64,000 bases of DNA, taken from the NCBI RefSeq assembly GCF_963678165.1, contig NZ_OY782755.1, positions 2,852,001 through 2,916,000 on the forward strand, written 5' to 3'. Shown in pieces: positions 17,398 through 62,752 of this stretch. The notes under the pieces are model-generated. The model saw only the letters and a program-made list of their open reading frames with translations, was not told the origin of the DNA and did not search any database. A program made the position numbers and the translations under genes. Source of the DNA: an uncultured Acetobacteroides sp. (GTDB lineage Bacteria > Bacteroidota > Bacteroidia > Bacteroidales > ZOR0009). How positions within the stretch are numbered: position 1 is the stretch's first letter; each line of letters opens with the position of its first letter.

Positions 17398-17658
17398 CGT
17401 ATAGCTACGGCAGCTCTAATCGGTACCCGGAACTACTACCGTATAGCTACGGTAGCTCTAATCGGAACCCAAAACATCTGCCGTATAGCTACGGTAGTTC
17501 TAACCGGAACCGGAAACACCTTCCGTATAGCTACGGTAGTTCTAATCGGAACCGGAAACATCTTCCGTATAGCTACGGCAGCTCTAATCGGTACCCAAAA
17601 CTCCTACCGTATAGCTACGGTAGCTCTAATCGGAACCGGAAACACCTTCCGTACATGC
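17398..17658. repeat. Tandem array 1: six 42-bp units plus a partial seventh
   Basis: Unit starts fall at 17398, 17440, 17482, 17524, 17566, 17608 and (partial) 17650, so every step is exactly 42 bp. Each unit opens with CGTATAGCTACGG; with the preceding C, present in most copies, this makes a 5-bp inverted repeat CCGTA/TACGG around TAGC. The rest, for example TCTAATCGGAACCGGAAACA, varies by a few bases. Because 42 is divisible by three, a 116-codon frame is open across it (17347-17697), but it has no supporting signal and I do not treat it as a gene. Confidence 0.92.
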
Positions 17659-17843
17659 ATGGAAACTCCCGTTGAAACTCAAAGATCCAACTTGTGAAGG
17701 TGCAAACCTCTGCCAGCTTTATCTCAACAGCTAGTAACCTGCTTGAACTGCTACGGCTGAAACAGCGTCAACCGACAGAGCACGGCAACGCCAGCCATTC
17801 GGCGACTGGCTTCTCACCAAAAGAGAGGAAATAGTTGATAGGG

Positions 17844-17885
17844 CGGCAGGCTACAGCCCTACGGTAAAAGAGCGACAGCCTGCCG
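17844..17885. other. Inverted repeat near the 3' end of the regulator gene
   Basis: CGGCAGGCT (17844-17852) is perfectly complementary to AGCCTGCCG (17877-17885). It lies 17 nt beyond the stop of the minus-strand hybrid regulator and may end or stabilise its transcript, but a T-run is lacking. The rest of 17659-17901 shows nothing else. Confidence 0.5.
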
Positions 17886-17901
17886 AGTTTGATTCTCGGC
17901 G

Positions 17902-20900
17902 CTACACGCTATCCGACTCGCCAGGCTTGTCAAACTTCTGCTTGTACTCCGACGGCAGCACCCCAAATTCGTCCTTGAAGTAGCGACGGAAGATCTTCGG
18001 ATCGTTAAAGCCCACCTTATACGCCACCTCCGACACGGCCAGCTGGCTCTTTTCGAAGTACTGCGCGGCGCGCTTTAACCGCAGGATGCGGATGAACTCG
18101 ATGGGGGTTTTCCCGGTTATCGAAAGGAGCTTCTTGTAGAGGTGCACGCGGCTCATGGCCAGGTGGCTGCTGAGTTCCTCGACGGAGAGGTCGGGGTTGC
18201 CGATGTTGGCCTCAACGTAGTCGACCGCCTTCTTCAGCAGCTTATCGTCGAGCGAGCTGATGCTAATCTCCGACGGCTTAATCTCCTTCTTCTGCTGAAA
18301 CTTCTGCTGTACGCTCCTTCGAAGCTCCACCAGCCGCTTTATTTTCAGCAGCAGCTCGTCCATAACGAATGGCTTGGAGAGGTAGTCGTTGGCGCCAGCC
18401 TCTAGGCCGGTCAGTTTGCTCTCCTCGCCCAGCTTTGCCGTTAGCAGGATAATGGGGATGTGCGATGTCCTAACGTCGTTCTGCATGCGCCGGCACAGCT
18501 CAAAACCATCCATTTCGGGCATCATCACATCGCTAACCACCATATCGGGGATTGCCTCCACAACCAGCTCCCAAGCCTCCTTCCCGTTCGGTGCCGTAAT
18601 AACGTTGTACGACTCCTTGAGGATCGAAACCATAAAGTCGAGGAACTCGTCGTTGTCGTCCACCACCAGCAGCGTTGGAGCGTTGATTAGCACCTGGGTG
18701 TGCGCATCTTCGTAGGCAATTTCTGTACTAGTCCCCTCCTCTTGCTCCTCGATAAAGTTCTCCGGAACAAACGCCACCCGCTTTACGGGTAAGCTGATGG
18801 TGAATTCGCTTCCTCCACCAAGTTCGCTTTTTACATCGATAGTTCCCTCGTGCATCTGCACAAACTCGTAGGCGATATTTAGCCCAATGCCCGTTCCTGT
18901 CACCGTCTGGTCGTTGGGCTCTACCCTGTAGAATCGGTCGAAAATGTGCGGCTGATCCTCGGGACTTATCCCCTTGCCCGTATCGCGAACGATGATTTGG
19001 AGCACCTCGTCCTCCTCCTCTCCCGCGGCAGCTACCTCTACGGCCACCTTTCCGCCATCAGGCGTATACTTAAAGGCGTTCGAAACAATGTTGGCCACGG
19101 CCTTGTACAGCTTATCCGAATCGAAATCGGTGTAGTAGCTTTGTAGCGTCGAACTAAAGGAGAAATGCACCTGCTTCTTAGCCGAAACCTCCTCAAACGA
19201 GGAACAAATCTCCCGCACAAGGGATACTATATCGCCAGTAGACTTCTTTATGGTATGCGCATTGGCATCAATCTTTCTAAAATCCAGCAGCTGATTAACC
19301 ATATTGAGCAGTCGAATGGAATTACGATGTGCCACCGATACAATTTTCTTATCCTCCACGTTGGATATCCGCCTAGCCAAGCGCTCCAACGGAGAAATAA
19401 TGAGCGTAAGGGGAGTGCGCAGCTCGTGGCTGAGGTTGGTGAAGAACTGCAGCTTCATCTCGTCCAAGTCGAGCCGCTGCTGGGTTTCAAACCACTCCTG
19501 CTTCTCGGCAAAGATTTTTTCCTGCCTTCGGATAAAGAACATAACAATGCTGTAGATTCCATATACGGCCAACAGAAGATAGAAGATAAAAGCAGCAGGA
19601 GTAGCCCAAAATGGAGGTGCAATAGTAATTTCAAGCTTGGTAGGCCTCGAACTCCAAACCCCATCATTGTTGGCACCCTCCACCATAAAGGTGTACTTTC
19701 CCGGATTGAGGTTGGTGTAGGTAACCTTTCGGGCGCTGGCATTCACCTCGGTCCACTGCTTATCAAACCCCTCCATGAAATACCGGTATCTATTTTTCTG
19801 AGGGAGGAAGTAACTTAGCGCGGCAAACTGCAAGCTAAAGTTGCGCTCGTTATATTTTAGGTGGATGGTTTGAACCCGATCCTCTTCGTTAAGGAGCCCA
19901 ATACTGCTACGGATGCTATCCTTCTTGCTAATCGACGAGTTTAGAACCGAGAAATCGGTAAAGGCAATCTTCGGAACAACCCTGTTATAAATAATTCGGG
20001 TAGGATCAAATCGATTAAATCCGCTTGGCCCGCCAAAAACGACCTCCCCCTTCGATGTCAGAAAGGCACTATTAACATTAAACTCATTTCCCTGAAGCCC
20101 ATCGCTTTTATCAAACTCCTTCACGAAATACGAGTAATCACCATTCTGGTTTTGCTTTAGTTTAAGCACAAATAGCCCATTACACGTCCCAAGCCAAATG
20201 CTTCCCTGCCGATCTTCAGCAATGGTAACAACCGTTTCATGGAGCACATCCGACTTAACAGGTAGATTCTCAAACCGCGATTTGGCGTAGTTGAATACCT
20301 TTATTCCCTCCTTGGTAGCAATCCAAAGTAGGCCCCTACGGTCAACATGCACATCGTTTACAAACAAGTTTGTGGAGACCCGCTTGCTCCCCTTGACATA
20401 AAAGTACGGGCTGCTTGCACCTGTCGCTGGGTTAAGCCGAGTAATACCACTAGAGTGGGCAACGAGTAGGTACCCCTCAGGGTCCTCAACAACACGGCAT
20501 ATTTGCCCACCTCCCATTTTATAGTGAACGAACTTCCCAGTTCTTCCATCGAACCGATCCAAATCGCCATTAAGCGTACCAACCCAGAGATTCTTGCGCC
20601 TATCAACATACAAGCTGTAAATGCTATTTGAAGAGATACTTGTGCTTTTGACAGGATCCTTTTTATAGTGAACAAAGGTTTTACCATTAAAATAGTCTAG
20701 CCCTCCCATATAGGTTCCAATCCAAAGGTTTCCCTTCCCATCACCTTTAAGGCTCACTACAATATTGCTCGATATCGAATTGGCACCCTCACCAGAATGC
20801 TTATAAACAATCGGACTACCACCCTTTCTATCGTACTTAATAAGGCCACCCCCATTTGTTCCAACCCATAGGCAACCGCTATTATCTTCATAGTAGCAGT

Positions 20901-21999
20901 TGCAGTCATTTTTCAGATAATCTTCCGATTTCGATTGAGGATAAACCGTTGTCTTGAACTTAAAGACGCTCTCGTGATAGTAGGACACCCCCTGTTTATA
21001 GGTTCCAACCCACATTATGCCAAGGTTGTCGCGATAAACGCATGTCGCCGAGTTTTGTGCCAACGACTGCATATTAGTAGGATCACTCCTTAGGTAGTCC
21101 ACCTTATTCGACCTAATATCGATAATATTAATTCCCCCATGATCAGTTGCTACCCATATTCTCTTTTTTGAATCCTCTTCCAATCCAAAAACCAAATTAG
21201 AGGAAAGTCTCATCCCCGAAGAACTGCTGCTGATACAATTCCAATACCGTGTACCCCTACTGTAATGGAATATACCATCATTCAACGAATAGGAGTAAAT
21301 CCAAATATCCTCGTTACTATCTATAAACAGCTGGCTTGTCTTCGAAGTACTATACTTTTTTATAAGCAATCCATTCGATGATAAACGAGCATTAGAGAGA
21401 GAACTATAGCAATCAACTCTCCCATTACTATATAATATCCAAACCTTCCCTTTTCGAGAAAAAATGTCAACTACACGCAAGCCATTAGGTTGAACGCTCC
21501 GAAAAAAGCAGATTAGCTTCTTTCCACGATAATCCCTCTTGTATAGCGTTCCATTGGCAAGCAGGAACCAAATATTTTTACCCTTATCAAAAAAGATATT
21601 GTCCACGCCACTTCTTATCCCAAATCTTAGCAGCTCGCTTTTTGCATCTTTGATAAACGAATCCGATAAAGGATCATACACTGAATAACCACTTGCAGTT
21701 TTCACCCACAAATGCCCATCATATGACTCACCTATCTTTTTTATGATGTTATTGCCAATGGAATTTGGCATACTAGAGTTATGCTTGTAAACTTTAAAGT
21801 TGTACCCATCGAAGCGATTTAGCCCCGATGCTGTACCAATCCAAAGAAATCCTCTACTATCCTTCTGAATACAGCTGATTTCGTTGTTCGACAGCCCATC
21901 GGACATAGAAATCCTGCTAAAATTGATTGACTGTGCGCTTGTTCGTAAGGCAATAAGCAAACAAGCGGCAACAATCAGCCTAGCAACGCATTTTACCAT
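17902..21999 (-). CDS. Hybrid two-component system regulator (HTCS) of the PUL
   Basis: One-protein sensor kinase and transcription factor of 1365 aa. After a signal peptide (MVKCVARLIVAACLLIALRT) come about 14 regulator-propeller repeats (GLWIGT/LWVGT motifs), a Y_Y_Y domain (about 700-780), a membrane helix (AAFIFYLLLAVYGIYSIVMF), a HisKA domain with NLSHELRTPL (His about 858), an HATPase domain with GTGIGLNIAYEF, a receiver domain with VSDVMMPEMDG (Asp about 1157), and a C-terminal AraC-type helix-turn-helix (FNDPKIFRRYFKDEFG). The periplasmic propeller senses an oligosaccharide released by the locus enzymes, and the AraC domain activates the PUL promoter. It is encoded just upstream of the GH31 operon on the same strand, with array 1 between them. 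Confidence 0.95.
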   Translation of the reverse strand: MVKCVARLIVAACLLIALRTSAQSINFSRISMSDGLSNNEISCIQKDSRGFLWIGTASGLNRFDGYNFKVYKHNSSMPNSIGNNIIKKIGESYDGHLWVKTASGYSVYDPLSDSFIKDAKSELLRFGIRSGVDNIFFDKGKNIWFLLANGTLYKRDYRGKKLICFFRSVQPNGLRVVDIFSRKGKVWILYSNGRVDCYSSLSNARLSSNGLLIKKYSTSKTSQLFIDSNEDIWIYSYSLNDGIFHYSRGTRYWNCISSSSSGMRLSSNLVFGLEEDSKKRIWVATDHGGINIIDIRSNKVDYLRSDPTNMQSLAQNSATCVYRDNLGIMWVGTYKQGVSYYHESVFKFKTTVYPQSKSEDYLKNDCNCYYEDNSGCLWVGTNGGGLIKYDRKGGSPIVYKHSGEGANSISSNIVVSLKGDGKGNLWIGTYMGGLDYFNGKTFVHYKKDPVKSTSISSNSIYSLYVDRRKNLWVGTLNGDLDRFDGRTGKFVHYKMGGGQICRVVEDPEGYLLVAHSSGITRLNPATGASSPYFYVKGSKRVSTNLFVNDVHVDRRGLLWIATKEGIKVFNYAKSRFENLPVKSDVLHETVVTIAEDRQGSIWLGTCNGLFVLKLKQNQNGDYSYFVKEFDKSDGLQGNEFNVNSAFLTSKGEVVFGGPSGFNRFDPTRIIYNRVVPKIAFTDFSVLNSSISKKDSIRSSIGLLNEEDRVQTIHLKYNERNFSLQFAALSYFLPQKNRYRYFMEGFDKQWTEVNASARKVTYTNLNPGKYTFMVEGANNDGVWSSRPTKLEITIAPPFWATPAAFIFYLLLAVYGIYSIVMFFIRRQEKIFAEKQEWFETQQRLDLDEMKLQFFTNLSHELRTPLTLIISPLERLARRISNVEDKKIVSVAHRNSIRLLNMVNQLLDFRKIDANAHTIKKSTGDIVSLVREICSSFEEVSAKKQVHFSFSSTLQSYYTDFDSDKLYKAVANIVSNAFKYTPDGGKVAVEVAAAGEEEDEVLQIIVRDTGKGISPEDQPHIFDRFYRVEPNDQTVTGTGIGLNIAYEFVQMHEGTIDVKSELGGGSEFTISLPVKRVAFVPENFIEEQEEGTSTEIAYEDAHTQVLINAPTLLVVDDNDEFLDFMVSILKESYNVITAPNGKEAWELVVEAIPDMVVSDVMMPEMDGFELCRRMQNDVRTSHIPIILLTAKLGEESKLTGLEAGANDYLSKPFVMDELLLKIKRLVELRRSVQQKFQQKKEIKPSEISISSLDDKLLKKAVDYVEANIGNPDLSVEELSSHLAMSRVHLYKKLLSITGKTPIEFIRILRLKRAAQYFEKSQLAVSEVAYKVGFNDPKIFRRYFKDEFGVLPSEYKQKFDKPGESDSV

Positions 22000-22480
22000 T
22001 ATTCAAGTGTTAATTTCGGCAGACCAAAATAACACTTATTTACATAAAAAACACTTCGCAATGGATTTTTTCCCTATATACCCCATTCTATTCCCTCCTA
22101 TAAAAACAAACCCACACAACACTATAGTTTTCACAAGCATAAAAACCAATCTGAAGAATATTCAAAAATAAGCATTCCTGTTTTTTGACCCTAACTACAT
22201 TCTAATGGAATATTCAACGTTAACGTAGCGGAACAATCAGCTAAGAGGTGATGGTGTGCAGCATCCCCTTGTAGGGTGTTAACGCCTCAAGGGTAGTTTT
22301 ATTCTACTCTAGCACATTTCTACTTTCTAGTTTTCGTATGATGACAAGACTCGTTCCCCAATCGTTAATGAGAAGTAGCCCCACTTTGTGGTGGTAGTTT
22401 TTCATCGCAATACAAAGATTTTATCCTTGGGATTAATCTCTGATTGCACTTCAAACTTGAATCTTGCTTTCAAAAAATAA
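22000..22480. other. Intergenic region upstream of the HTCS gene
   Basis: This 481-bp stretch lies between the HTCS start and the terminator of the S9 peptidase gene. It is AT-rich near the HTCS. On the minus strand TTATTTTG (22025-22032) is one base off a TAnnTTTG -7 element, without a correctly spaced TTTG. I see no gene, array or convincing hairpin. Confidence 0.4.
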
Positions 22481-22508
22481 AAAAGCGCGAGCATTGCCCG
22501 CGCTTTTT
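22481..22508. terminator. Rho-independent terminator after the S9 peptidase gene
   Basis: AGCGCG (22484-22489) pairs with CGCGCT (22499-22504), flanked by an A-run on the left and TTTTT on the right, so it can work in both directions. It lies about 33 nt past the peptidase stop. Confidence 0.85.
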
Positions 22509-22524
22509 CTATTTCTATCGATTA

Positions 22525-22548
22525 AAGACTACATCTAACATCTACTTC
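22525..22548. repeat. Copy of the ACATCTAACATCTA dispersed repeat
   Basis: AAAGACTACATCTAACATCT spans the stop codon of the S9 peptidase gene. Related sequences occur at 27766-27795 and as an inverted pair at 38782-38858 (TAGATGTTAGACTTTAGATA family). Confidence 0.5.
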
Positions 22549-24605: not shown

Positions 24606-24699
24606 CTGCTACGTTTTTTTATGATTTGAGGGGATGAAGATAGCGATTAGTGCCGCAGGTTGAGCGGCAATCTTCTAAAAGATTCGCTTGTGATTAGGC

Positions 24700-24960: not shown

Positions 24961-25148
24961 GCGTCCCTCCTTGCCATGTTCCTACGCAGAATCGCCAAGG
25001 AAGGGGAAAGGCCAACCAACAAAATCGAGCGCCCGACAGCTAACATCCGTAGCCGATGCTCGTGATGGTTCGTAATGCGCTTTTTGTTACCTTGCCCGTC
25101 CGTTACTGGCATGTGCCCCTTTAGGCGCCAACTACTGCTAGAACGTAA

Positions 25149-46892: not shown

Positions 46893-47016
46893 ACACCCAT
46901 ATCCAGTTGGCAAACGTGCATTTCGAGAACCAGCACATGATTTTAGCCTAGCTAAATGTGCATCTGCCAATACAAAGCGTGCATTTAAAGAGATATACCG
47001 TGTAGTTAGCAATTCA

Positions 47017-47310
47017 GAGCATGTGGCTAGGTAATCAGAACGTGTGGCTGGAAATTCAGAGCATGCGGCTAGACAATCAGAACGTGTGGCTGGAAATTTA
47101 GAGCGTGCGGCGAAACAATTAGAGCGTGTGGCTGGAAATTTAGAGCATGCGGCTAAACAATCAGAGCGTGCAGAAGGAAATTTAGAGCATGCGGCTAAAC
47201 AATCAGAACGTGCAGAAGGAAATTCAGAGCATGCGGCTAAACAATCAGAACGTGCAGAAGGAAATTCAGAGCATGCGGCTAAACATTTAGAGCATGCATT
47301 TCGAAAGGTA
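47017..47310. repeat. Tandem array 3: seven 42-bp units, each of two 21-bp halves
   Basis: The landmark GAGC(A/G)TG starts at 47017, 47059, 47101, 47143, 47185, 47227 and 47269, always 42 bp apart, with a final half-unit at 47290. Each unit is made of two related 21-bp halves, GAGCATGCGGCTAAACAATC and GAACGTGCAGAAGGAAATTC. Most first halves contain the palindrome GCATGC. Fainter 21-bp copies extend upstream to about 46950. A frame encoding heptad-like repeats (HAAKQSERAEGNSE) stays open over the array, simply because 42 is a multiple of three. The array lies between convergent genes. Confidence 0.92.
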
Positions 47311-51297: not shown

Positions 51298-51316
51298 AAC
51301 CTAAGCAAAGAATAGC

Positions 51317-51366
51317 AAAGCTCCGCTCCGCAATGATTCGCTCATTCGGAACGGAGCTTTTTCTTT
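51317..51366 (+). terminator. Rho-independent terminator after the small lipoprotein gene
   Basis: AAAGCTCCG (51317-51325) pairs with CGGAGCTTT (51352-51360), followed by TTCTTTT. Confidence 0.88.
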
Positions 51367-51387
51367 TCTACCCCTAGGCCTCATCGT

Positions 51388-51750
51388 CCTAAAAAATAGA
51401 AAGGAAGCGAGGGGTGACCTCTTCATCGGCCTAAAAAATGAAAAGGAAGCGGGGGATGACCTCTTCATCGACCAAAAAATGAAAAGGAAGCGGGGGGTGA
51501 CCATTTCATCGGCCTAAAAAATGGAAAGGAAGCGGGGGGTGACCTCTTCATCGACCTAAAAAACGGAAAGGAAGCGGGGGATGACCTCTTCATCGACCTA
51601 AAAAATGAAAAGGAAGCAAGGGGTGACCTCTTCATCGACCTAAAAAACGAAAAGGAAGCGGGGGATGACCTCTTCATCGACCTAAAAAATGAAAAGGAAG
51701 CAAGGGGTGACCATTTCATCGACCTAAAAAATGGAAAGGAAGCAGGGGAT
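51388..51750. repeat. Tandem array 4: nine units of 42 bp (one 41)
   Basis: Units start at 51388, 51430, 51472, 51513, 51555, 51597, 51639, 51681 and 51723. The unit reads CCTAAAAAATGAAAAGGAAG then CG(G/A)GGG(A/G)TGACC and TCTTCATCGA, with two main subtypes (GGGGATGACC and GGGGTGACC) that tend to alternate. One unit has lost a T. The minus-strand frame is open through the whole array (repeating FFRSMKRSPPASFS), an effect of the period. The last unit ends 16 bp before a candidate -7 box of the next gene. Confidence 0.92.
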
Positions 51751-51766
51751 GCATCTGCGAATATGC

Positions 51767-51806
51767 TACTTTTGCCTCCCAGCAGCAGGCTGACATCGGC
51801 TGCTGG
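51767..51806 (+). promoter_or_regulatory. Candidate -7 box and leader hairpin of the BNR_4-type gene
   Basis: TACTTTTG (51767-51774) perfectly matches TAnnTTTG, though no TTTG lies at -33. In the presumed leader CCAGCAGC (51779-51786) pairs with GCTGCTGG (51799-51806), which could affect translation of the gene starting at 51838. Confidence 0.5.
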
Positions 51807-51837
51807 CGTTTCAGGAATCACCAAAAAATATGGAAAG

Positions 51838-53181
51838 ATGAAGCATAGAGCAACCCTACTACTAGCCCTACTGGCCATCCCGGCATGCCAGGCGCTAGCC
51901 CAGCTGTCGCAAGTTGGACTAGGATGGGCGAAGAATGCCGTCAACGCTCCCGTTTTCCGGAAGAACTCCGTGGTGTCGTTCAACGGCACGCAGTACACGG
52001 CCTACTACGACTCCACCGCGCACCTGGTGGTGGCCAAGCGGAAGTACCCCAGCAACCACTGGGAGGTCAGGCAAACCAAGTTCACCGGCAAGGTGAGCGA
52101 CGCACACAACTCCATCAGCATTATGGTGGATGGCGACGGCTACCTGCATGTGGCCTGGGACCACCACAACAACCAGCTCCGCTACTGCAAAAGCCTTTCG
52201 CCAAACTCGCTCGACATGTCGGAGCTATCGCCCATGGTAGGTACCCAGGAGAACGATGTAACCTACCCCGAATTCTTTAAGCTGCCCAGCGGCGACCTCC
52301 TGTTCATGTACCGATACGGCATATCGGGCAACGGCAACCTGATCATCAACAAGTACAGCATAAAGGAAAAAACATGGAAGCGCCTACACGATGTGCTGAT
52401 TGACGGCGAAGGCGAACGGAATGCCTACTGGCAGGCATGCGTCGATGCGAGGGGCACCATCCACATCTCGTGGGTTTGGAGGGAGACCTGGGATGTATCC
52501 ACCAACCACGACCTCTGCTACGCCAAGTCTACCGACGGCGGGCTAACCTGGCAGAACTCCAAGGGGGCTGCCTATAAGCTCCCCATAACCGCAGCTACCG
52601 CCGAATACGTTAGCCGCATCCCGCAGAAGAGCGAGCTAATCAACCAAACCTCCATGTGCGCCGACTCGAAGGGGAACGCCTACATTGCCTCCTACTGGAA
52701 GCCCAAGGGCGAGCAGGTTCCGCAATACCACCTGGTGTACTACTGCAGCGATAGCGCAAGATGGATCACCAAGCAGGCATCTAACCGGCAAACGGCCTTC
52801 TCGCTTAGCGGAGGGGGGACCAAAAAGATTCCCATATCGCGCCCTCAGCTACTGCTAAAGGAGAACAAGGGGAAACCGACCACCATCTACCTCGTTTACC
52901 GCGATGCTGAGCGCAACAGCAAGGTATCGCTCAACATTAGCAATGATGCTAGGTATTCGAAGTGGGAGACCTTCGACCTCACCGACTTCTCGGTGAACAG
53001 CTGGGAGCCAAGCTACGACACCGAGCTCTGGAAGCAGGCGTCTACGCTAAGCCTATTTGTTCAGAATATGGGGCAAGGCGATGGCGAACACCTGGAGAGC
53101 CTCCCTGCCCAGCCGGTATACATCCTATCGCTGCCAGCAAAGCTTAAGGCAAAGAGCAAAGGCTCCTTTACAACCAAGTAA
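51838..53181 (+). CDS. BNR_4-type seven-bladed propeller protein, candidate polysaccharide lyase
   Basis: A 447-aa exported protein from the ATG at 51838 (MKHRATLLLALLAIPACQAL); the longer frame from 51763 runs through the leader hairpin. The beta-propeller is shown by repeated strands, for example ISIMVDGDGYLHVAWDHHNN, NEYAEV-like blades and SPNSLDMSELSPMVG. The family motif WDHHNNQLRY contains the paired His that is part of the active site region in ulvan lyases of families PL24/PL25, which share this domain; other BNR_4 proteins are of unknown activity. The convergent neighbour is a GH88 unsaturated-glucuronyl hydrolase, which normally acts on lyase products. I therefore suggest, without certainty, a polysaccharide lyase. 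Confidence 0.75.
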   Translation: MKHRATLLLALLAIPACQALAQLSQVGLGWAKNAVNAPVFRKNSVVSFNGTQYTAYYDSTAHLVVAKRKYPSNHWEVRQTKFTGKVSDAHNSISIMVDGDGYLHVAWDHHNNQLRYCKSLSPNSLDMSELSPMVGTQENDVTYPEFFKLPSGDLLFMYRYGISGNGNLIINKYSIKEKTWKRLHDVLIDGEGERNAYWQACVDARGTIHISWVWRETWDVSTNHDLCYAKSTDGGLTWQNSKGAAYKLPITAATAEYVSRIPQKSELINQTSMCADSKGNAYIASYWKPKGEQVPQYHLVYYCSDSARWITKQASNRQTAFSLSGGGTKKIPISRPQLLLKENKGKPTTIYLVYRDAERNSKVSLNISNDARYSKWETFDLTDFSVNSWEPSYDTELWKQASTLSLFVQNMGQGDGEHLESLPAQPVYILSLPAKLKAKSKGSFTTK

Positions 53182-53202
53182 GCCTCGGCACCGAGCTATA
53201 AA

Positions 53203-53240
53203 AAATAAGAGGGTACTCCCAGCGGAGCACCCTCTTATTT
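53203..53240. terminator. Bidirectional terminator between the BNR_4-type and GH88 genes
   Basis: AAATAAGAGGGT (53203-53214) pairs with ACCCTCTTATTT (53229-53240), with A-run and T-run on the two sides. It lies between convergent genes. Confidence 0.9.
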
Positions 53241-53273
53241 TTATACCGTAGCAGCAGTCGCTGCAGGAAGCGG

Positions 53274-54500
53274 CTAATGCTTTGCGTCTAGTACAACCTT
53301 CTTGTAGCGGAGCATTGCCTCAATAAAGTAGTAATCGGCATAGCTTAGCGGAACATCTACTTCCGTCTTTCCGGGAATCGAGCCTACGCTGTGCTTAAGG
53401 ATAAACCCGCCATTCTTCCCAAGCTCGGCCCTGTAGGGTGCTGCCGATAGGCTTCGAATCTGCTGCTCGGCAATTGCCAGATACCTCTTTGCGGTAGCCT
53501 TGTCAACATACTGGCTAAGTTCGATAAGCGCCGAGCAGGTAAGCGCACCTGCCGATGCATCGCGGTAAGCATCGGGGATATTGGGCGCATTGTAGTCCCA
53601 GTAGGGAATTTTATCCTCGATAGGCTTCAGCTGCTCCATCACGTATTCGGCAATACGGCGAGCCCAGTCTAGGTACTTCTTGTCCTTCGTCTCGCGGTAC
53701 ATCACCGTGTAACCGTATAGCGCCCATCCTTGCCCTCTCGACCACGACGAGCCATCGGCATACCCCTGCTCGGTTTGCTGCCTGCGCACGCTTCCGTCGG
53801 CAAGGTTGTAGTCTACCACATGGAACGAGCTGTAGTCGGGTCGAAAGTGGTTCTCCATGGTAACGTTGGCATGGCTAACGGCAATTTTGTAGAACGACGA
53901 ATCACCAGACATACGGGTAGCCTCGGCCAGCAGCTCAAGGTTCATCATGTTGTCGATAATAACAGGGCATTGCCACCCCCTATTTTTATTCCACGAGACA
54001 ATATCCCACGACTGAATGCATCCAACCTTCTCCCTAAAGCGGGTAGAAAGCGACTTAGCTCCGGTAACAAGCACCTCCTTATAGGCCTTGTTTCCCGTTA
54101 TGCGATAGCCATTGCCAAAGCTGCAGTAGAGCATAAAACCCACATCGTGATTATCGGTGGTGTACTTCTGGTTCTCCACCCTCGCCGTGTACAGCTCGGC
54201 CATTTTCTTCACCTGCTCGTTCTTTGAGTACTCGAACAGGTACCACAACGATCCTGGAAAAAAGCCGCTTGTCCACCAGTCGGACTTACAGGTAACCAGC
54301 TTACTGTTCCAGTCGGTAGTTTTGGGCAGCAATGTCGATGAATCTTTTAGCGTGTTGGCTAAAAACATGTGCTGCTTTACGGCAAAGTCCATCGAATTCT
54401 TTACCACTTCGGACATAGGCTGCACCCGAGGCTTTTGGCCCATCAGCGCACCCGAAATGCATAGCGCAATAAGAATAGTAACTCCCTTCTTCATTTCCAT
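53274..54500 (-). CDS. GH88 unsaturated glucuronyl hydrolase, exported
   Basis: An (alpha/alpha)6-barrel enzyme of 408 aa from the ATG at 54500 (MEMKKGVTILIALCISGALM); 54494 is an alternative and 54539 a poor one, since it would put polar residues before the signal peptide. Family markers are NHDVGFMLYC with the first catalytic Asp (about 119), VIIDNMMNLELL with the second Asp (about 183), and SSWSRGQGWALYGYTVMY. GH88 hydrates the 4,5-unsaturated uronic acid left by polysaccharide lyases, so that it falls off as a keto-acid. The convergent BNR_4-type protein is a possible source of its substrate. Confidence 0.9.
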   Translation of the reverse strand: MEMKKGVTILIALCISGALMGQKPRVQPMSEVVKNSMDFAVKQHMFLANTLKDSSTLLPKTTDWNSKLVTCKSDWWTSGFFPGSLWYLFEYSKNEQVKKMAELYTARVENQKYTTDNHDVGFMLYCSFGNGYRITGNKAYKEVLVTGAKSLSTRFREKVGCIQSWDIVSWNKNRGWQCPVIIDNMMNLELLAEATRMSGDSSFYKIAVSHANVTMENHFRPDYSSFHVVDYNLADGSVRRQQTEQGYADGSSWSRGQGWALYGYTVMYRETKDKKYLDWARRIAEYVMEQLKPIEDKIPYWDYNAPNIPDAYRDASAGALTCSALIELSQYVDKATAKRYLAIAEQQIRSLSAAPYRAELGKNGGFILKHSVGSIPGKTEVDVPLSYADYYFIEAMLRYKKVVLDAKH

Positions 54501-54636
54501 AGGTTTAAATACGCCGATTCTCCATCCAAATTTAGGCATCCTATTTCCTAAGAAGGAAACCTAAACTATCAGCTAAGGAGTACAGCTTCTAAATTTTACT
54601 GATTTCGCCAAAGATATACGAAGCAGTACAAATTAC

Positions 54637-54669
54637 AAACCCCACCAAGGAGTCTCCTTAATGGGGTTT
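54637..54669 (-). terminator. Hairpin terminator of the proline operon
   Basis: AAACCCCA (54637-54644) pairs with TGGGGTTT (54662-54669), with an inner AAGGAG/CTCCTT stem. It is 21 nt past the proA stop. Confidence 0.8.
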
Positions 54670-54689
54670 CCATAAATAAGAAATGGCCG

Positions 54690-55940
54690 CTACTGCCGCA
54701 CCTGCCCATTACCCTCCACAATCCACTTGTACGAGGTTAGCTCCTCCACTCCCATCGGACCACGAGCATGCAGCTTCTGGGTGCTGATACCAATCTCGGC
54801 ACCGAGCCCAAACTGGGCGCCATCGGTAAATGCAGTTGATGCGTTGGCGTACACCGCAGCAGCATCAACCCTCTTTAGGAATTGATCCACCCGATCCTTA
54901 TCCTCCGAGATGATAGCCTCGCTATGCTTGGAGCTGTAGGTGGCAATATGGTCGAGCGCCTCATCAAACGAGTTAACCGTTTTAATGGACATCTTGTAGT
55001 CCAAGAACTCGGTTCCGAAATGCTCGTCAGCAGCATGCTGAAGTAATTCTGCAGGGTAATTCTCGTCAAGGGCAACATAGGCTCTGGCATCGGCGTATAT
55101 GGTTACCTTTTTCTCCGCAAGCTTGGCGCAAAGAAATGGCAAATCAGGAAGCCGCTCCCTATCGATAACCAGGCAGTCGAGCGCATTGCATACGCTTACC
55201 CGGCGGGTTTTTGCGTTGGTGATAATAGCTTGCCCCCTTGCCGAATCGCCAGAACTCTCGAAGTAGGTATGGCAGATGCCGGCTCCTGTCTCTATAATAG
55301 GAATTGAAGAGTGCTTTCGTACAAAATTGATGAGTGCTTGACCTCCACGAGGGATAATAACATCCACCAAGCCATTTGCCGAAAGCAGCTCGGCAGCGGC
55401 AACCCTATCAATTGGCAGCAGGTTTACAATGTTCGTATCAACCCCGAAATCGGTAAGCACACTCTTTATCAAAGACACAATGGCAACATTCGAATGATGG
55501 GCATCCGAGCCTCCTTTCAGGATGGTAGCGTTGCCCGACTTAAGGCAGAGCGCAAACACATCGAACGTAACGTTAGGACGTGCCTCGAAGATAACCCCTA
55601 CAACCCCCAGCGGCACCGACACCTTGGTTAGCTTTAGCCCATTGGCTAGCGTTCGCTGCTCTCTGATCCGATTTAAAGGAGAAGGTAGCTCCGCCACATT
55701 CCGCAGATCGCTAGCGATAGCCTCAATGCGCTCCCCACTTAGCAGCAAACGGTCGTACCTAGGATCGTCGTATCTCATTGCTGCCGCATCTTTGGCATTT
55801 GCCTTAAGAATGACATCAGCGTGGGCAATCGCTCTATCGGCAACAGCATTCAGGATGCTGCCTACAAGAGCATCATCCAGGAAGCCCACCGCTCTCGATG
55901 CCCGTTGCGTATTTTCCAGTATCGATTTAATGCTACCCAT
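54690..55940 (-). CDS. proA: Gamma-glutamyl phosphate reductase
   Basis: Second enzyme of proline synthesis, 416 aa, reducing gamma-glutamyl phosphate to glutamate semialdehyde with NADPH. Aldehyde-dehydrogenase fold; signatures are [17 protein letters not shown], the catalytic Cys in [14 protein letters not shown], and [15 protein letters not shown] near the end. Last gene of the operon, 64 nt after proB. Confidence 0.96.
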
Positions 55941-56004
55941 TCTAATGGTATTATATTAAAAGGAGATGGATGTAATATTGCACCTCTACCATTTGTCCCT
56001 TGAG

Positions 56005-57093: not shown

Positions 57094-57094
57094 A

Positions 57095-57895: not shown

Positions 57896-57913
57896 AGTCC
57901 TTCGGTATATTTT

Positions 57914-58357
57914 CTAGTCGATCTCCTGATCGTACTTCTTGCAAAGATCGCAAATTCCCCTGTAAGGGCAAGCCAGCTCGTGGGTCGTGCAAGGCTCTAT
58001 AATCCTAGGGGTGTAGTATAGCGCCTTCGAATCGTCGAGCCACAGGTCGCGAAGAAAGGTGTAGCGCATATGCAAGGGCAAATTTGCAGGAAACGCCACA
58101 ATTTTACCTAGCGCATTAAAGGCATTCTCTAGCGCATTGGCTAGCGAGCCCGCTTGCTCGTGGCTAAGCGTAGCCACCTCAGGCAGTCCAACCCTTTCGA
58201 CCTTATACCTGCGGTTGAAGATACCGAAGTAGGTACTAATGGATAGGGCTTGGTTTTTTACCTTTTGTGATTTGGTGGTTGCCGCGGAGGATATTACTGA
58301 ACCCATTTCGGCAATATCCACAATACGCCTTAGCGATTGGTTTATGCAAAGTTCCAT
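57914..58357 (-). CDS. Cys-cluster protein at the head of the proline operon, 147 aa
   Basis: A soluble protein of unknown family that starts 18 nt upstream of proC. The N-terminal half is helical (MELCINQSLRRIVDIAEMGS, LANALENAFNALGKIVAF); the C-terminal 25 residues carry CTTHELACPYRGICDLC, four cysteines and one histidine with spacing C-x6-C-x5-C-x2-C, as expected of a zinc or Fe-S site. It could be a regulator or a partner of the pathway, but sequence alone does not show which. The spacing argues for co-transcription with the pro genes. Confidence 0.7.
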   Translation of the reverse strand: MELCINQSLRRIVDIAEMGSVISSAATTKSQKVKNQALSISTYFGIFNRRYKVERVGLPEVATLSHEQAGSLANALENAFNALGKIVAFPANLPLHMRYTFLRDLWLDDSKALYYTPRIIEPCTTHELACPYRGICDLCKKYDQEID

Positions 58358-58792
58358 AACGAAAAAAATATTGAAGGATGAAAAAAGTTTACTTACCCAA
58401 GGGAGGTGGGGGATGCGCGGTTGCTACCGCACTTTTTGCCAAAAGCGCCGTGCAAATCTTTCCGGGTAATTTCGATGATACTGGTTAATCATAGTTGAAG
58501 ATTGTGACACGATTCGAGGGCAATATAGAAACTAAAATCACACCTGATACCGAACCTATATTTTATTACTATTCTTTAACAGCACCCTAAACCTAAACAG
58601 GGGGACGGCAGCAAAAACATACAGTTTATCTTAACATCACCCCAAAACAAAGCACCCCACAAAAGCAAAAACCAGAAAGAGGTTTCATCTTTCAGGTTTC
58701 AATATGTAAGTTTTCTACAATACATAAATATCCTACGGACAATAGCTGTACTGTAAAAGTACCGCGTGGCGGTTATAGTTTGGTTTTATAAC
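58358..58792. other. Intergenic region upstream of the proline operon
   Basis: About 435 bp with no credible gene. It should contain the operon promoter, but no minus-strand TAnnTTTG is present near 58357. It is AT-rich from 58500 onward. Confidence 0.35.
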
Positions 58793-59085
58793 GAAAAGGG
58801 TAGGTATTAGTGATGAGTTAACCCTTTTCTTAGAGAATATATTCAACCCCTTGGGGGTTGTTTTCATCTTCCGATCAAATTCCCCGAGTTTCACTCGGGG
58901 CTATTAAAGTTAAAGCCCTTACGGGCTTCAAGTAGTAGAGATGATAGGTTGATTCTATACTAATGTAGAGTATTATCGCATAATGGTTGCTAATCTACAA
59001 TCCGAAAGGATTGAATTCTAATAGCCCCGCATGCAATGCGGGGAAACAAAGTCTAGTATAATCACAACCGCAGCGCGGTTGAATA
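58793..59085. repeat. Cluster of short hairpins with mirror-image organisation
   Basis: Seven stem-loops lie in 290 bp: AAAAGGGT/ACCCTTTT (from 58794), CAACCCC/GGGGTTG (58850-58870), CCCCGAG/CTCGGGG (58882-58900), AAGCCC/GGGCTT (58913-58928), CAATCC/GGATTG (58998-59013), CCCCGCAT/ATGCGGGG (59025-59043) and CAACCGC/GCGGTTG (59065-59081). The third and fourth, and on the opposite strand the sixth and fifth, share the linker GGGGCTATTA followed by an A-rich stretch, while their stem sequences differ. The unit therefore forms a structural inverted repeat. No gene is visible in it or in 59086-59228. Confidence 0.8.
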
Positions 59086-59228
59086 GCGAAATGAAAAGAG
59101 GACATTCCTCACCCAAAACGTTATGAGCCTATAGTTTTGTAAAGTTCCCTTCCACCCTTATTGTTCTTATTCTCCGAAAAGAAATGTTGTAATATTTTTA
59201 CAGATGCACGTCCGTGCCTTTCCTCGCC

Positions 59229-60206
59229 CTACTCGTGGCTGCTATAGTAGCGCATAAACTGCGACCGCTCGTAAACACCCAGGTCGCCCAGATTTCTAGG
59301 GTTCATCAAGCCCCTAAAGTCTTCTATCGACTCGTACTGATGCCGATCCATCCATCCGCCAATAGAATCGAGCATCTCGCCAATGGTACTAAGCCCTTTT
59401 TTGTAGAGCACCGAGCAAACCTCCACCACGGTGGCTCCGGCAAGCAGCTGCTTGATGGCCGCCTCGCCGCCGTGAATGCCCGTTGATGCGGCAACATCAA
59501 TCGTAGGAACTGCCGCCGAAACAATGCCCACCCAGCGCAACGACTCGCGGATGTCGGAGGGCGTACTGTAGACGCTGGCCGACCCTACCTCCAGGGTTTC
59601 GATGTTGATATCGGGCTCGTAGAAGCGGTTGAAGAGCACCACCCCGTTAATCTTACGGAAGTAGAGCTGATCGACCATGTGGGGAATGCTGGTGAAGGTC
59701 TTGGCCATCTTCACCGATAGCGGAATGGAAACAATGCTGCGCAGCCTGGTGGCGATGGCCAGGTACTGCTCCTCGTACGCTGCCGCATTCAGCTCCTTTT
59801 TCGATGCTAGGAAGTAGATGTTCAGCTCCAGCGCATCGGCACCGGCGGCCTCTATCCGCTTGGCGAAGTTCACCCACTCGCCCACCGAGGTGCAGCTAAT
59901 GCTGGCGATTACGGGAATCGACACCGCCATTTTTGCCTCGCGAATCAGCGTCAGGTACTCCTCCACCGAGTTGTTCACGGCGTAGCTCATGATGTAGTCG
60001 TGGGCCTCGGGGTAGTCGCCCTCGCGCTCGTAGGCGTGCGCATCGTGGGTAAGCTGCTCCTGAAAAAGCGACTTAAGCACCACCGCAGCGGCACCGGCAT
60101 CCTCCATCTTTTTTATGTTTTCGACGGATGATGTCAAGCCCGAGCTGCTTACGACTACTGGATTTTTAAGGGATAGCCCAAGATACCTTACGCCTAATGA
60201 TTTCAT
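59229..60206 (-). CDS. Dihydroorotate dehydrogenase-like flavoprotein
   Basis: A 325-aa TIM-barrel protein from the ATG at 60206 (MKSLGVRYLGLSLKNPVVVS). FMN-binding features of the DHOD superfamily are present (LKNPVVVSSSGLTSS, IPLSVKMAKTFTSI with the FMN-contacting Lys, and VAASTGIHGGEAAIKQLLAG at the phosphate site). The catalytic-base loop of class 1 DHOD, NxSCPN, is replaced by LELNIYFLASKK, so orotate synthesis is doubtful. Proteins like this are widespread in Bacteroidetes under the name dihydroorotate dehydrogenase-like; their reaction is not established. Neighbours give no pyrimidine context. Confidence 0.82.
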   Translation of the reverse strand: MKSLGVRYLGLSLKNPVVVSSSGLTSSVENIKKMEDAGAAAVVLKSLFQEQLTHDAHAYEREGDYPEAHDYIMSYAVNNSVEEYLTLIREAKMAVSIPVIASISCTSVGEWVNFAKRIEAAGADALELNIYFLASKKELNAAAYEEQYLAIATRLRSIVSIPLSVKMAKTFTSIPHMVDQLYFRKINGVVLFNRFYEPDINIETLEVGSASVYSTPSDIRESLRWVGIVSAAVPTIDVAASTGIHGGEAAIKQLLAGATVVEVCSVLYKKGLSTIGEMLDSIGGWMDRHQYESIEDFRGLMNPRNLGDLGVYERSQFMRYYSSHE

Positions 60207-60468
60207 GGCCAAATGTCGTTTTGATGAATCACCAGACAAGTTATGAAATCATCGGGAGGAATGCACCTAAGGATTGGGCATAAAGCCCATATCGCTAAAC
60301 GAATGTGATTTTTGAAAGAAGATTGATGGTAAACACTAGGGGCTGTTTTTCCTCTCGCTTAGGCAATGTCATTAACTTAAGCATATCGTTCAATCAGCGC
60401 TGTCATTCCGGGCTTGTCCCGGGATCTCCTGAGGATATAAAATTGCATTCTGGAGGAGATCCCGGCCC

Positions 60469-60715
60469 ATAGCCGTCAAGCTAAGCCTGAATTCAAAAGG
60501 ATAAATGCCCAATAGCAGCACGTTATCCCCTCCTCGGGAGGGGTAGGGGTGGGTTAAGAACGCGAAGAGAAGCGGGAAATGTTTATTTAAACGAACAAAC
60601 CCACCCCCTGCCCCTCCAAGGAGGGGATAACCAATTTCAATCATGCACTAATGCTTGATATCTATCTTTATCCTTTCAAAACGTAGCACTAAGCATCCTT
60701 AGCTTGACGGCTATG
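60469..60715. mobile_element. MITE-like element, about 247 bp, with 18-bp terminal inverted repeats
   Basis: The left end CATAGCCGTCAAGCTAAG (60469-60486, counting from the C) is the exact reverse complement of CTTAGCTTGACGGCTATG at the right end. The same 10-bp GATCCCGGCC stands just outside both ends (60459-60468 and 60716-60725), as expected of a target-site duplication. There is no transposase frame inside. Near the middle a 34-bp imperfect inverted repeat (60522-60555 and 60598-60631, GTTATCCCCTCCT type) is enclosed. I infer a non-autonomous mobile element. End positions may shift by one or two bases. Confidence 0.7.
60522..60631. repeat. Inner 34-bp imperfect inverted repeat
   Basis: GTTATCCCCTCCTCGGGAGG (from 60522) opposes CCTCCAAGGAGGGGATAAC (to 60631); the complete arms are 34 bp with a few differences around a 42-bp centre. 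It lies within the MITE-like element and may be a further nested insertion. Confidence 0.75.
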
Positions 60716-60793
60716 GATCCCGGCCTTCGCCATGGTGTTTACGGAAGAAGGTTATACGAAACTGCTAAACTTGCCTCCCTAAAAAGAACCGTC

Positions 60794-61468
60794 TTATTTT
60801 AAGTACACCCGCCCGCCAAAGATTGCCGAGCCCACGCGTACCATGGTGCTGCCCTCCTCGATGGCAATGCGGAAATCGTCCGACATGCCCATCGAGATCT
60901 CCTTAAACGAGGGCTCGCTGGCGTAGTACTTCTGCTTGATCTTCGTATATATCTCCTTAAGGTTGTGGAACTCGCCGCGCACCTGCTCCACGTTGTCGGT
61001 AAAGGTGGCCATGCCCATCACGCCCACCATGCGGACGTTGCGGAGTTCGGCCAGCGCGCCCGATTCGAGGAGCTCCGCCAGCTCGGCGTAGTCGAAGCCA
61101 AACTTGGTCTCCTCCTGGGCGATGTACATCTGAAAGAGGCAGTCGATTACGCGGCCACACTTGGCGGCCTCCTTGTCGATTACCGCCAGCAGCTTGGGCG
61201 AATCTACCGAGTGGATGAGCGCCACAAACGGCGCGATGTACTTCACCTTGTTGGTTTGCAGGTGGCCAATCATGTGCCACTCGATATCCTTGGGCAGGTC
61301 GGCCCACTTCTGGGTTAGCTCCTGCGGCTTGTTCTCGCCAAACACGCGCTGCCCGGCCTGGTAGGCCTCCTCGATGGCCTCGTTGGGCTTGGTCTTCGAT
61401 ACGGCTATCAGCGTTACGCCGGCAGGCACGTCCTTTCTTATCTCGCTTAGGTTTTCTCTTACGCTCAT
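60794..61468 (-). CDS. YggS-family pyridoxal-phosphate homeostasis protein
   Basis: A 224-aa PLP-binding protein from the ATG at 61468 (MSVRENLSEIRKDVPAGVTL); the TTG start at 61501 adds only MVPLVPKKQSE. Single-domain TIM barrel of the alanine-racemase N-terminal type. The PLP Lys is in LIAVSKTKPNE, and WHMIGHLQTNKVKYI and SMGMSDDFRIAIEEGSTMVR are family signatures. It maintains free PLP levels and has no known catalytic reaction. Stands alone between the repeat cluster and a hypothetical gene. Confidence 0.93.
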   Translation of the reverse strand: MSVRENLSEIRKDVPAGVTLIAVSKTKPNEAIEEAYQAGQRVFGENKPQELTQKWADLPKDIEWHMIGHLQTNKVKYIAPFVALIHSVDSPKLLAVIDKEAAKCGRVIDCLFQMYIAQEETKFGFDYAELAELLESGALAELRNVRMVGVMGMATFTDNVEQVRGEFHNLKEIYTKIKQKYYASEPSFKEISMGMSDDFRIAIEEGSTMVRVGSAIFGGRVYLK

Positions 61469-61645
61469 CTCGCTCTGTTTTTTCGGCACCAAAGGTACCA
61501 AAGGCGGAGGAATTGCGAAGGGGTGCTGCTCGTTTTTGTGCAGCTATTCGGAAGGTAGACGAAAAAGATTTCGCGTTTTCCCCCTAGCTGCTGCATCAAT
61601 TCGAGACGCACTGCTCGCGTCTCTAAATTGCCATCCCCGTTCCAC

Positions 61646-61678
61646 CAAACAAAAAGCCCCTCGCCGAACGACGAAGGG
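61646..61678 (-). terminator. Terminator of the 163-aa gene
   Basis: GCCCCTCG (61655-61662) pairs with CGAAGGGC (61671-61678) with one mismatch; on the minus strand it is followed by a T-run. Confidence 0.7.
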
Positions 61679-61720
61679 CCTACCTGTGCCTTGGTTTGTA
61701 ATAGGTTTAGTGCTTCTTAC

Positions 61721-62212
61721 TTACTTGTTAGGTTGATCTTTCTTAGGTTTACTCTCCGCCTTGCGGGCACGCGTAAAGAACTCCTTAAGCGCATTGTAGC
61801 TAGCCTCGGCACCAGGGGTGTCCGAGCGACGTTTGAAATCAATATACCGGTAAAGTACCAACGAATCGTTGTAGTTATCGTAGTCGTGCATCATCTTGGC
61901 GCTCTCGAAACGGCTGATGATACCATTGGCAAGCAGCAGAACGCTCTCGTAGAACATCCGTGCGCTATAGTCCTTTTCGTACTCTACCCAGTCCACCTCT
62001 AGCGGAGCCAGCTGTGGGTTAATAGTCTTAATCTCTCTAGACTTGTTGATAAAGAGCTTATTCTTTTCGTTAACCGAACCGAAGAAGCCCCGTTTATCCG
62101 CATTCAGATCAGGTAGCTTAGCATCAACAATAGCCTTAATGCTGTTTAGGGCCGTATTTATCGTCTTCTTTTCCTCCTCCGTGAGAAGGTCTACAATTAC
62201 ATTAGAATCCAT
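61721..62212 (-). CDS. Hypothetical protein, 163 aa
   Basis: Soluble, mostly helical protein with no signal peptide. It begins MDSNVIVDLLTEEEKKTINT and ends in a charged Lys/Pro tail (RARKAESKPKKDQPNK), similar in style to the tail of the 242-aa protein at 46112. A central region (SARMFYESVLLLANGIISRF) forms an amphipathic helix. Family not recognised. Its own terminator and typical codon use support a real gene. Confidence 0.72.
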   Translation of the reverse strand: MDSNVIVDLLTEEEKKTINTALNSIKAIVDAKLPDLNADKRGFFGSVNEKNKLFINKSREIKTINPQLAPLEVDWVEYEKDYSARMFYESVLLLANGIISRFESAKMMHDYDNYNDSLVLYRYIDFKRRSDTPGAEASYNALKEFFTRARKAESKPKKDQPNK

Positions 62213-62509
62213 AATTTATTCATTTTTTAAGGCACAGGTAACGTGCGATATTAGTATTTTTTAGGTTTACTACAAAGTATTGCCATCTTTATTTTTCATT
62301 TCATCAAAAATAGTAGGCGCATACCATGCACACCTACTGTCCTATATCGATTATACATGTCGAGCATTCCCAAAACGGCAACTATTAACATCCACTATGC
62401 ACGAGCTGCTGCAATTAGCAAACGGTAACACCTCCGATAGGCATTGGAACACCCCCAATACCCGAGCAACCACCCCTACACGCCCTTGGTTTAGGTTCGG
62501 AACCTAAAC

Positions 62510-62752
62510 GGACCACCTGTATAGGTGGTTCCGACCACCTCCATAGGTGTTCCGTACCACCTTCGAGGCCCATCCGACCACCTCTATAGGTGGTAGCGAC
62601 CACCCCAACAGGTGTATCGGACCACCTGTATAGGTATTCCCGACCACCTCCATAGGTGTTCCGTACCACCTTCGAGGCCCAACCGACCACCCTTGTAGGT
62701 GGTAGCGATTACCCCAACAGGTGTAACAAACCACCTTGGAGGCTCACCATTG
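62510..62752. repeat. Tandem array 5: eleven 21-22-bp units in a 109-bp higher-order repeat
   Basis: Units of the form GACCACCTnnATAGGTGGTnCC follow each other. The five-unit block from 62510 (lengths 22, 21, 22, 22, 22) recurs from 62619, giving a 109-bp higher-order period. Several units hold the perfect hairpin ACCACCT/AGGTGGT around four bases (for example 62512-62529). All three minus-strand frames are open over it. The array lies between divergent genes. The flanks 62213-62509 and 62753-62900 show no gene. Confidence 0.9.

What the first reader, a model, noticed from the sequence alone, without database searches (positions are those of the whole stretch)
17398..62752. Five intergenic tandem arrays with unrelated units but a shared period near 42 or 21 bp
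Arrays at 17.4, 24.7, 47.0, 51.4 and 62.5 kb have no sequence in common, yet their periods are 42, 41, 42 (2 x 21), 42 (one 41-bp step) and 21-22 bp. Forty-two bp is four turns of B-DNA and 21 bp two turns, so in three arrays each unit faces the same side of the helix. Most unit types contain a small palindrome. Copy numbers are 6 to 11 and all arrays are outside genes, in every kind of neighbour orientation. This suggests one process, such as binding of a nucleoid protein or a copying mechanism, that constrains period and not sequence. The helical argument is inference.
Basis: partly seen in the sequence, partly recalled or inferred. Interest (0 to 1): 0.72.

Follow-up and report, generated by a model that had tools for sequence, protein, structure and literature searches.

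The report
Evenly spaced, period-locked intergenic repeat arrays
A bacterium and its two sampled sister species carry many intergenic tandem repeats whose sequences mostly differ but whose repeat length is nearly always about 21 or 42 base pairs, and these arrays keep several kilobases apart along the chromosome, as if the cell read spacing rather than sequence.

Summary
In 1.66 Mb sampled from the 4.30 Mb genome, 87 of 90 tandem arrays with periods of 10-60 bp lie at 20-23 or 40-44 bp. Two same-genus genomes give 23 of 23 and 10 of 10; samples of 12 other-family genomes of the order give 1 of 3. Within the sample, 92 of 131 arrays have no detected relative, though both window arrays searched genome-wide did have some. 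Indels are scarce: 75 gaps against 302 in simulated neutral arrays, and 2 gaps per 194 substitutions between related arrays. Units of 40-44 bp are rich in hairpins with 3-4 base loops; units of 20-23 bp are not. A new result: arrays avoid each other below about 6 kb (6 gaps observed, 20.4 expected), in two species separately.

Best reading: chromosome-architecture or topology sites read by spacing rather than sequence, turned over by local amplification and module exchange. This mechanism is inferred (confidence 0.37). The main rival is a mutational process with a fixed step. Coding, RNA-only and one-mobile-repeat readings fit poorly.

The parts
17393..17653 (.). array 1, 42-bp unit, 6.2 copies; one half holds a hairpin CTACCGTA-TAGC-TACGGTAG, the other half (AATCGGAACC..) recurs in other arrays of the genome
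24703..24966 (.). array 2, 41-bp unit, 6.4 copies; divergent neighbours; the syntenic interval of G002 is 1.6 kb long and has no array
47011..47285 (.). array 3, 42-bp unit made of two related 21-bp halves; convergent neighbours; no array in the syntenic 0.5-kb interval of G002
51381..51748 (.). array 4, 42-bp unit, 8.8 copies; co-directional neighbours; lies in a segment (about 51.3-54.7 kb) absent from G002, where the flanks are 85 bp apart
62507..62736 (.). array 5, ~22-bp unit, several with the hairpin ACCACCT..AGGTGGT, in a five-unit higher-order repeat of 109 bp; divergent neighbours

Best explanation
The arrays belong to a set of non-coding sites found in all three sampled species of the genus (about 225 in this genome by extrapolation from 87 in 1.664 Mb). 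Each is a run of contiguous repeats whose length is ~21 bp (two helical turns) or ~42 bp, 228 bp long in all at the median. What is kept is the repeat length and register, and in the 42-bp class a short palindrome; the letters are largely free to change. A few loci indicate that copies arise by local amplification and that modules are swapped in register. Most likely, by inference, the arrays are chromosome-architecture or topology sites, one per ~17-19 kb on average with an exclusion zone of about 6 kb, read by a protein or topoisomerase that contacts DNA every two or four turns rather than by a sequence-specific factor (a BIME-2-like role). Shown by computation: period lock, scarce indels, hairpin excess in the 42-bp class, turnover, mutual avoidance. 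Inferred: any bound protein and any topological role.
For: Period lock: 87 of 90, 23 of 23 and 10 of 10 arrays of period 10-60 bp in three species, against 1 of 3 in samples of 12 other-family genomes. Few indels: 2959 substitutions to 75 gaps in 120 arrays, against 2990 to 302 when neutral indels are simulated; 194 substitutions to 2 gaps between 23 related pairs, where noncoding own-G002 DNA gives 8.5 substitutions per gap; unit-by-unit pairing that does not favour equal periods agrees (22 of 23 pairs within the 40-44 class have equal period). Hairpins in 40-44 bp units: 25 four-base loops against 5.2 expected from ordinary noncoding DNA, 12 three-base loops against 5.0. Modules swapped in register: L093 5971-6110 and L081/L105, L061 15795-16140. 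Spacing: 6 of 50 gaps under 6 kb against 20.4 with a null matched for neighbour class and intergenic length, 0 of 1000 as low; own genome 6 against 15.1 (P 0.00025) and G002 0 against 5.6 (P 0.0005) separately.
Against: Units of 20-23 bp show no hairpin excess (4 of 31), so shape cannot be the general signal. Within arrays, stem positions show no excess of double changes (0.123 against 0.161 in slid controls; 25 of 59 double changes keep pairing). Outside arrays hairpins show no 21-bp spacing. Curvature is not selected. With permissive gap costs the indel shortage is smaller, 2010 substitutions to 127 gaps in 87 arrays against 8.7 to 1. Positions turn over: 7 of 9 orthologous intervals found automatically have no array in the other species, odd for an essential site. 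No binding protein was identified. The spacing test rests on 50 gaps, and G001 gave none.
Confidence: 0.37

Rival explanations
1. Mutational ruler: in this genus a replication or repair process makes tandem duplications of a fixed step (~21 or ~42 nt); arrays are neutral by-products, and palindromes are perfected by template switching.
For: Units can resemble DNA next to them: the G002 array in L110 repeats the core of an inverted repeat followed by a T run that stands beside it, and the L050 and L112 arrays of two species start with the same 24 bases and then run on with different 42-bp units. The substitution spectrum inside arrays is ordinary (Ti/Tv 1.44). Loop inversions (TGTC/GACA; GTG/CAC) fit template switching. 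Hairpins are absent as an excess from 20-23 bp units, so shape need not be selected.
Against: A neutral array should gather indels like its surroundings and should not avoid other arrays within 6 kb. The 41-bp arrays lack a 20-21 bp sub-repeat. L082 and L103 keep about five units and what looks like one shared short step in two species.
Confidence: 0.3
2. Arrays of operators or centromere-like sites, each bound by its own sequence-specific dimeric protein, as in sopC of plasmid F.
For: sopC has twelve 43-bp repeats with ten 16-bp inverted repeats (passage in PMC6238139). Some families here keep half-sites and vary a 4-bp spacer, e.g. GTACTG-NNNN-CAGTAC in three arrays. An AraC-type HTH regulator gene lies beside array 1 (17902-21999).
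Against: It would need many proteins: in the sample there are 17 small families and 92 singletons. No ParB or Rep match among 15 window proteins tested, but 6 of them had no Pfam match at all.
Confidence: 0.13
3. Transcribed strings of RNA hairpins (UTR or small-RNA elements).
For: 3-4 base loops dominate in 40-44 bp units; in one G002 array stem pairs change T-A to C-G between units (by eye, site 2); single arrays lean to one strand in their wobble pairs (chi-square 56.8 on 25 arrays), though shared descent of copies could cause that.
Against: No overall strand preference of wobble pairs (G-T 128, A-C 136) and no excess of double changes; all neighbour orientations; no Rfam match in the window at gathering thresholds; 20-23 bp units lack hairpins.
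Confidence: 0.1
4. A mobile repeat family spread over the genome (REP/RAYT- or MITE-like).
For: 39 of 131 sampled arrays fall in 17 families at different loci; the two window arrays searched genome-wide have relatives at five other places and at two other own places plus one in G002; five intact Y1 transposase genes.
Against: Families have 2-4 sampled members; five related pairs compared with their flanks match over the array only; I saw no common end motif by eye; none of the four Y1 loci read (3.3 kb each, of five intact genes) carries a 21/42-bp array.
Confidence: 0.06
5. Remains of protein-coding 7- or 14-residue repeats.
For: 21 and 42 are multiples of three, and my gene caller placed 14 of 87 own arrays in mostly short ORFs.
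Against: 28 of the 87 own arrays have periods that are not multiples of three (22, 40, 41, 43, 44).
Confidence: 0.02

Closest known systems
REP / BIME-2 elements of enterobacteria
   Same: intergenic, palindromic, in clusters, many per chromosome; [quoted passage not shown] passages of PMC3733652)
   Different: REP families share a sequence and a GTAG or CGTC tag; here most sampled units are unrelated, and period is the shared trait
sopC centromere of plasmid F (plasmid iterons: recalled)
   Same: twelve contiguous repeats of 43 bp with ten 16-bp inverted repeats (passage of PMC6238139)
   Different: one site, one sequence, one cognate ParB; here an estimated 200 or more sites with many sequences
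Bacterial minisatellites / VNTRs
   Same: intergenic tandem arrays evolving by copying of a unit
   Different: period is normally arbitrary from locus to locus (recalled); here it is quantised at ~21 and ~42 bp, with few indels and mutual avoidance
Eukaryotic centromeric satellites (recalled)
   Same: unit length held while sequence turns over quickly
   Different: nucleosome-sized units in one large block per chromosome

Membership tests
minisatellite / VNTR | contiguous tandem copies of a short unit | tested here: met
minisatellite / VNTR | unit length unconstrained from locus to locus (definition recalled) | tested here: not met
   87 of 90, 23 of 23 and 10 of 10 in two narrow classes
REP / BIME | many copies of one or a few related palindromes | tested here: not met
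   within the sample 92 of 131 arrays without a relative, families of 2-4
REP / BIME | palindromic unit | tested here: inconclusive
   65 of 89 units of 40-44 bp with a stem of 5 bp or more (background 0.52), 4 of 31 units of 20-23 bp (background 0.14)
REP / BIME | Y1 (RAYT) gene flanked by the repeats | tested here: not met
   five intact Y1 genes; no 21/42-bp array in the four loci read, 3.3 kb each
REP / BIME | gyrase binding (BIME-2) | not testable with these tools
   needs Topo-Seq or binding assays
sopC-like ParB centromere / iterons | cognate ParB or Rep gene beside the site | tested here: inconclusive
   no ParB or Rep match among 15 window proteins, 6 of which had no Pfam match; only the window was tested
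CRISPR | near-identical repeats separated by unique spacers | tested here: not met
   units repeat without spacers
mobile repeat from one ancestor | descent of most copies from one element | tested here: not met
   33 related pairs among 131 sampled arrays, 0 against column-shuffled arrays; the unsampled 61% of the genome was not compared array by array
coding repeats | period a multiple of three | tested here: not met
   28 of 87 own arrays are not

The most novel reading that the evidence does not exclude
A bacterial chromosome is punctuated about every 17-19 kb by sequence-free landmarks: arrays recognised by a two- or four-turn repeat spacing, kept about 6 kb or more apart, that set supercoiling domains or load a nucleoid or topology machine, while their letters turn over freely.
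Probability: 0.31. Interest if true: 0.93.

Novelty: categorically new. Interest (0 to 1): 0.82.

Why it matters
Repeats are normally grouped by sequence. Here the shared trait is length, register and placement, which sequence-based searches do not see. If the arrays are architectural sites, they give a direct handle on an open question: how a bacterial chromosome can mark domains without a boundary sequence. If they are mutational instead, there is a copying process with a built-in 21-nt ruler, which would be equally new to me. I found no description of such arrays in the listings of six full-text searches (three of them returned no paper), which cover only the held open-access library and only the words I chose.

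Tried and rejected
Helical phase alone: not enough, since 31-32 and 52-53 bp are nearly absent. Curved DNA: no excess over column-shuffled arrays (wedge parameters recalled, not looked up); arrays are more curved than flanks (0.891 against 0.928), as any in-phase repetition would be. A 10-11 bp A/T rhythm: none. RNA covariation: none within arrays overall. Hairpin spacing of 21 bp outside arrays: none; an earlier count that seemed to show it included arrays, where two palindromes tiling a unit lie half a period apart by geometry. Flank hairpins in phase with the array (stems of 6 bp: 12 of 20 against 5.0; of 5 bp: 35 of 94 against 23.5) may be decayed copies, so I give them little weight. My first hairpin control was too weak: shuffled units gave 69 of 120 against 37.2, but 42-mers 20-300 bp outside arrays also had a stem in 113 of 237, 119 of 235 and 113 of 232 cases (same call). 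Against ordinary noncoding DNA the excess holds for the 40-44 bp class only. Diversity-generating retroelement: no RVT_1 match in the genome, ordinary substitution spectrum. Shared motif: weak enrichment only, TCCGA in 17 of 87 family representatives against 4.5 expected. My first coding call was misled by ORFs opened by the repeats and was replaced. Organism name: not obtained; the one named hit is an uncultured Bacteroidetes genome with 62% identity in one protein.

Weak points: own-genome stretches were taken every 40 kb up to 1.6 Mb, every 60 kb up to about 3.8 Mb and more thinly after that; three (L065, L067, L099) were moved or chosen so that they cover hits, which slightly favours arrays, and the window was known to hold five. 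Five G002 stretches and eight G001 stretches were placed round hits of an unrelated protein search. G001 is a draft of about 130 contigs. Gene calls are my own simple model. Related pairs are not independent (families of 3-4). TRF disfavours arrays with many indels. One search counted 33 related pairs, which reads one direction only, 32.
Full report
What was checked. The window is bases 2852001-2916000 of a single-contig genome of 4,298,710 bp. Two genomes of the same genus are held, G001 and G002; the other 28 relatives returned are of other families in the same order. TRF confirms the five arrays, and the sequences are as described.

Genome-scale test. I read 80 stretches of 20 kb of the own genome plus the window (1.664 Mb), 0.396 Mb of G002, 0.377 Mb of G001 and 0.399 Mb from 12 genomes of other families. 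Counting arrays of at least 100 bp and two copies: the own sample has 109 arrays, 90 of them with a period of 10-60 bp, and 87 of those 90 lie at 20-23 or 40-44 bp (21: 19, 22: 4, 40: 1, 41: 17, 42: 40, 43: 5, 44: 1; the other three are 31, 46 and 54). G002 gives 23 of 23, G001 10 of 10, the other families 1 of 3. A lag spectrum made without TRF shows peaks at 21, 41-42, 63, 82-84, 105 and 123-126 and little between. Density over all periods is 65.5, 63.1 and 34.5 arrays per Mb in the three species and 17.5 in the controls. By extrapolation the own genome holds about 225 arrays of this class. Array length in the own genome is 228 bp at the median and 135 to 334 bp between the 10th and 90th percentiles.

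Sequence content. Of 131 sampled arrays of the three species, 39 fall into 17 families of two to four (E 1e-6) and 92 stand alone; at E 1e-4 there are 33 related pairs, and none against column-shuffled arrays. This understates kinship, because only 39% of the own genome was sampled: the two window arrays searched through the whole genome both had relatives, at five other loci and at two other own loci plus one in G002. The 42-bp units are mostly not dimers of 21: self-match at lag 21 is 0.33 against a background near 0.25, and 41-bp arrays show nothing at 20-21. Copies within an array are nearly equally similar at any distance (0.823 at one step, 0.843 at two, 0.800 at six), and end copies are about as good as inner ones (0.847 and 0.856).

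Register is kept. Against the array consensus, 120 arrays show 2959 substitutions and 75 gaps, and 92 have no gap; simulated arrays with one indel per 8.5 substitutions gave 302 gaps for 2990 substitutions. The ratio 8.5 is that of noncoding DNA aligned between the own genome and G002. With more permissive gap costs the shortage is smaller: 2010 substitutions to 127 gaps in 87 own arrays, 15.8 to 1 against 8.7. Between 23 of 32 related pairs (both periods 40-44; nine pairs of other period classes were set aside) there are 194 substitutions and 2 gaps, with equal period in 22. Pairing unit by unit, which does not favour equal periods, gives 22 equal of 23 within that class, plus one 31/43 pair. 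Families keep even odd lengths: three related arrays are all 41 bp, and three pair up at 43 bp.

Hairpins. In units of 40-44 bp, stems of at least 5 bp occur in 65 of 89, against 0.52 of 7068 ordinary noncoding 42-mers; four-base loops number 25 against 5.2 and three-base loops 12 against 5.0. Units of 20-23 bp show no excess (4 of 31; background 0.14). Some arrays swap one stem for another in register: L093 runs AAATCTAA/TTAGATTT and then TCTCACA/TGTGAGA beside a recognisable partner module; L081 and its G002 counterpart L105 change GCATGC to a CCC-ATA-GGG type; L061 changes CATTTGG/CCAAATG to CTACGCC/GGCGTAG. These were seen by eye. Against a general RNA reading, stem positions show no excess of double changes and G-T equals A-C over 49 arrays, though single arrays lean to one strand (chi-square 56.8 on 25).

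Origin and turnover. One G002 array (L110) repeats the core of an inverted repeat followed by a T run that stands beside it. At L050/L112 both species start with the same 24 bases and then run on with related but different 42-bp units. Sites shared between species are L082/L103, which keeps about five units and what looks like one shared short step, L081/L105, L050/L112 and L091/L116. Other sites are empty in a sister: own L054 against G001 (104 bp between the flanks) and G002 L100 against own L083 (125 bp). Of nine orthologous intervals found automatically by flanking genes, two hold an array in the other species and seven do not. In the window, the intervals syntenic to the arrays at 24.7, 47.0 and 51.4 kb carry none in G002; the arrays at 17.4 and 62.5 kb could not be judged.

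Placement. Arrays lie between genes in all orientations: 49 of 545 co-directional, 29 of 141 convergent, 33 of 228 divergent and 11 of 66 edge regions carry one. The unexpected result is that arrays avoid each other. With arrays closer than 1.5 kb merged, 6 of 50 gaps are under 6 kb against 20.4 when the same number is placed within the same segments by a null matched for neighbour class and intergenic length (0 of 1000 as low). Simpler nulls agree. A region-level version without merging gives 6 against 15.1 in the own genome (P 0.00025) and 0 against 5.6 in G002 (P 0.0005); G001 gave no gaps to test. One 299-kb contig of G002 has 18 arrays with a coefficient of variation of 0.60 against 0.89 (P 0.02-0.03).

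Reading. Many sequences with one length class, scarce indels, and mutual avoidance along the chromosome together point to sites that are read by spacing and that act at the scale of the chromosome; in the 42-bp class hairpin shape may add to it. E. coli BIME-2 elements, which gyrase prefers (PMC6379681, passages), are the nearest functional parallel; sopC of plasmid F (twelve 43-bp repeats with ten 16-bp inverted repeats; PMC6238139, passage) is the nearest in anatomy. Neither is a family to which these arrays belong, since both are defined by a shared sequence. The strongest rival is a mutational process with a fixed step; it explains local origin, loop inversion and the lack of hairpins in short units, but not the scarcity of indels or the avoidance. 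I put 0.37 on the architectural reading (0.40) and about 0.97 on the observation itself.

Noticed in passing
L083:10136-10594 and L124:11084-11553: Higher-order arrays of 151 bp (own) and 171 bp (G001) share words such as CGGATACGTTGCA; similar words stand beside the L073 array, so this family may be old in the genus.
   Followed up: no
window 51300-54690: A segment with a BNR_4 protein gene (51763-53181) and array 4 is absent from G002, where the flanks are 85 bp apart.
   Followed up: partly
L061:15795-16140; L069 and L074 arrays: Hairpin loops occur in both orientations (TGTC/GACA, GTG/CAC) inside otherwise similar stems, a sign of template switching or hairpin inversion.
   Followed up: partly
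arrays of all three genomes: Array units are richer in G+C (0.490) than other noncoding DNA (0.412), close to the genome sample (0.474); biased gene conversion among copies could do this.
   Followed up: no
L081:13369-13794 and L105:10717-11135: Nearly identical tandem tRNA-like units of 114 bp (own) and 112 bp (G002).
   Followed up: no
window 17902-21999: A hybrid two-component regulator with an AraC-type HTH lies beside array 1; no link to the array was tested.
   Followed up: no
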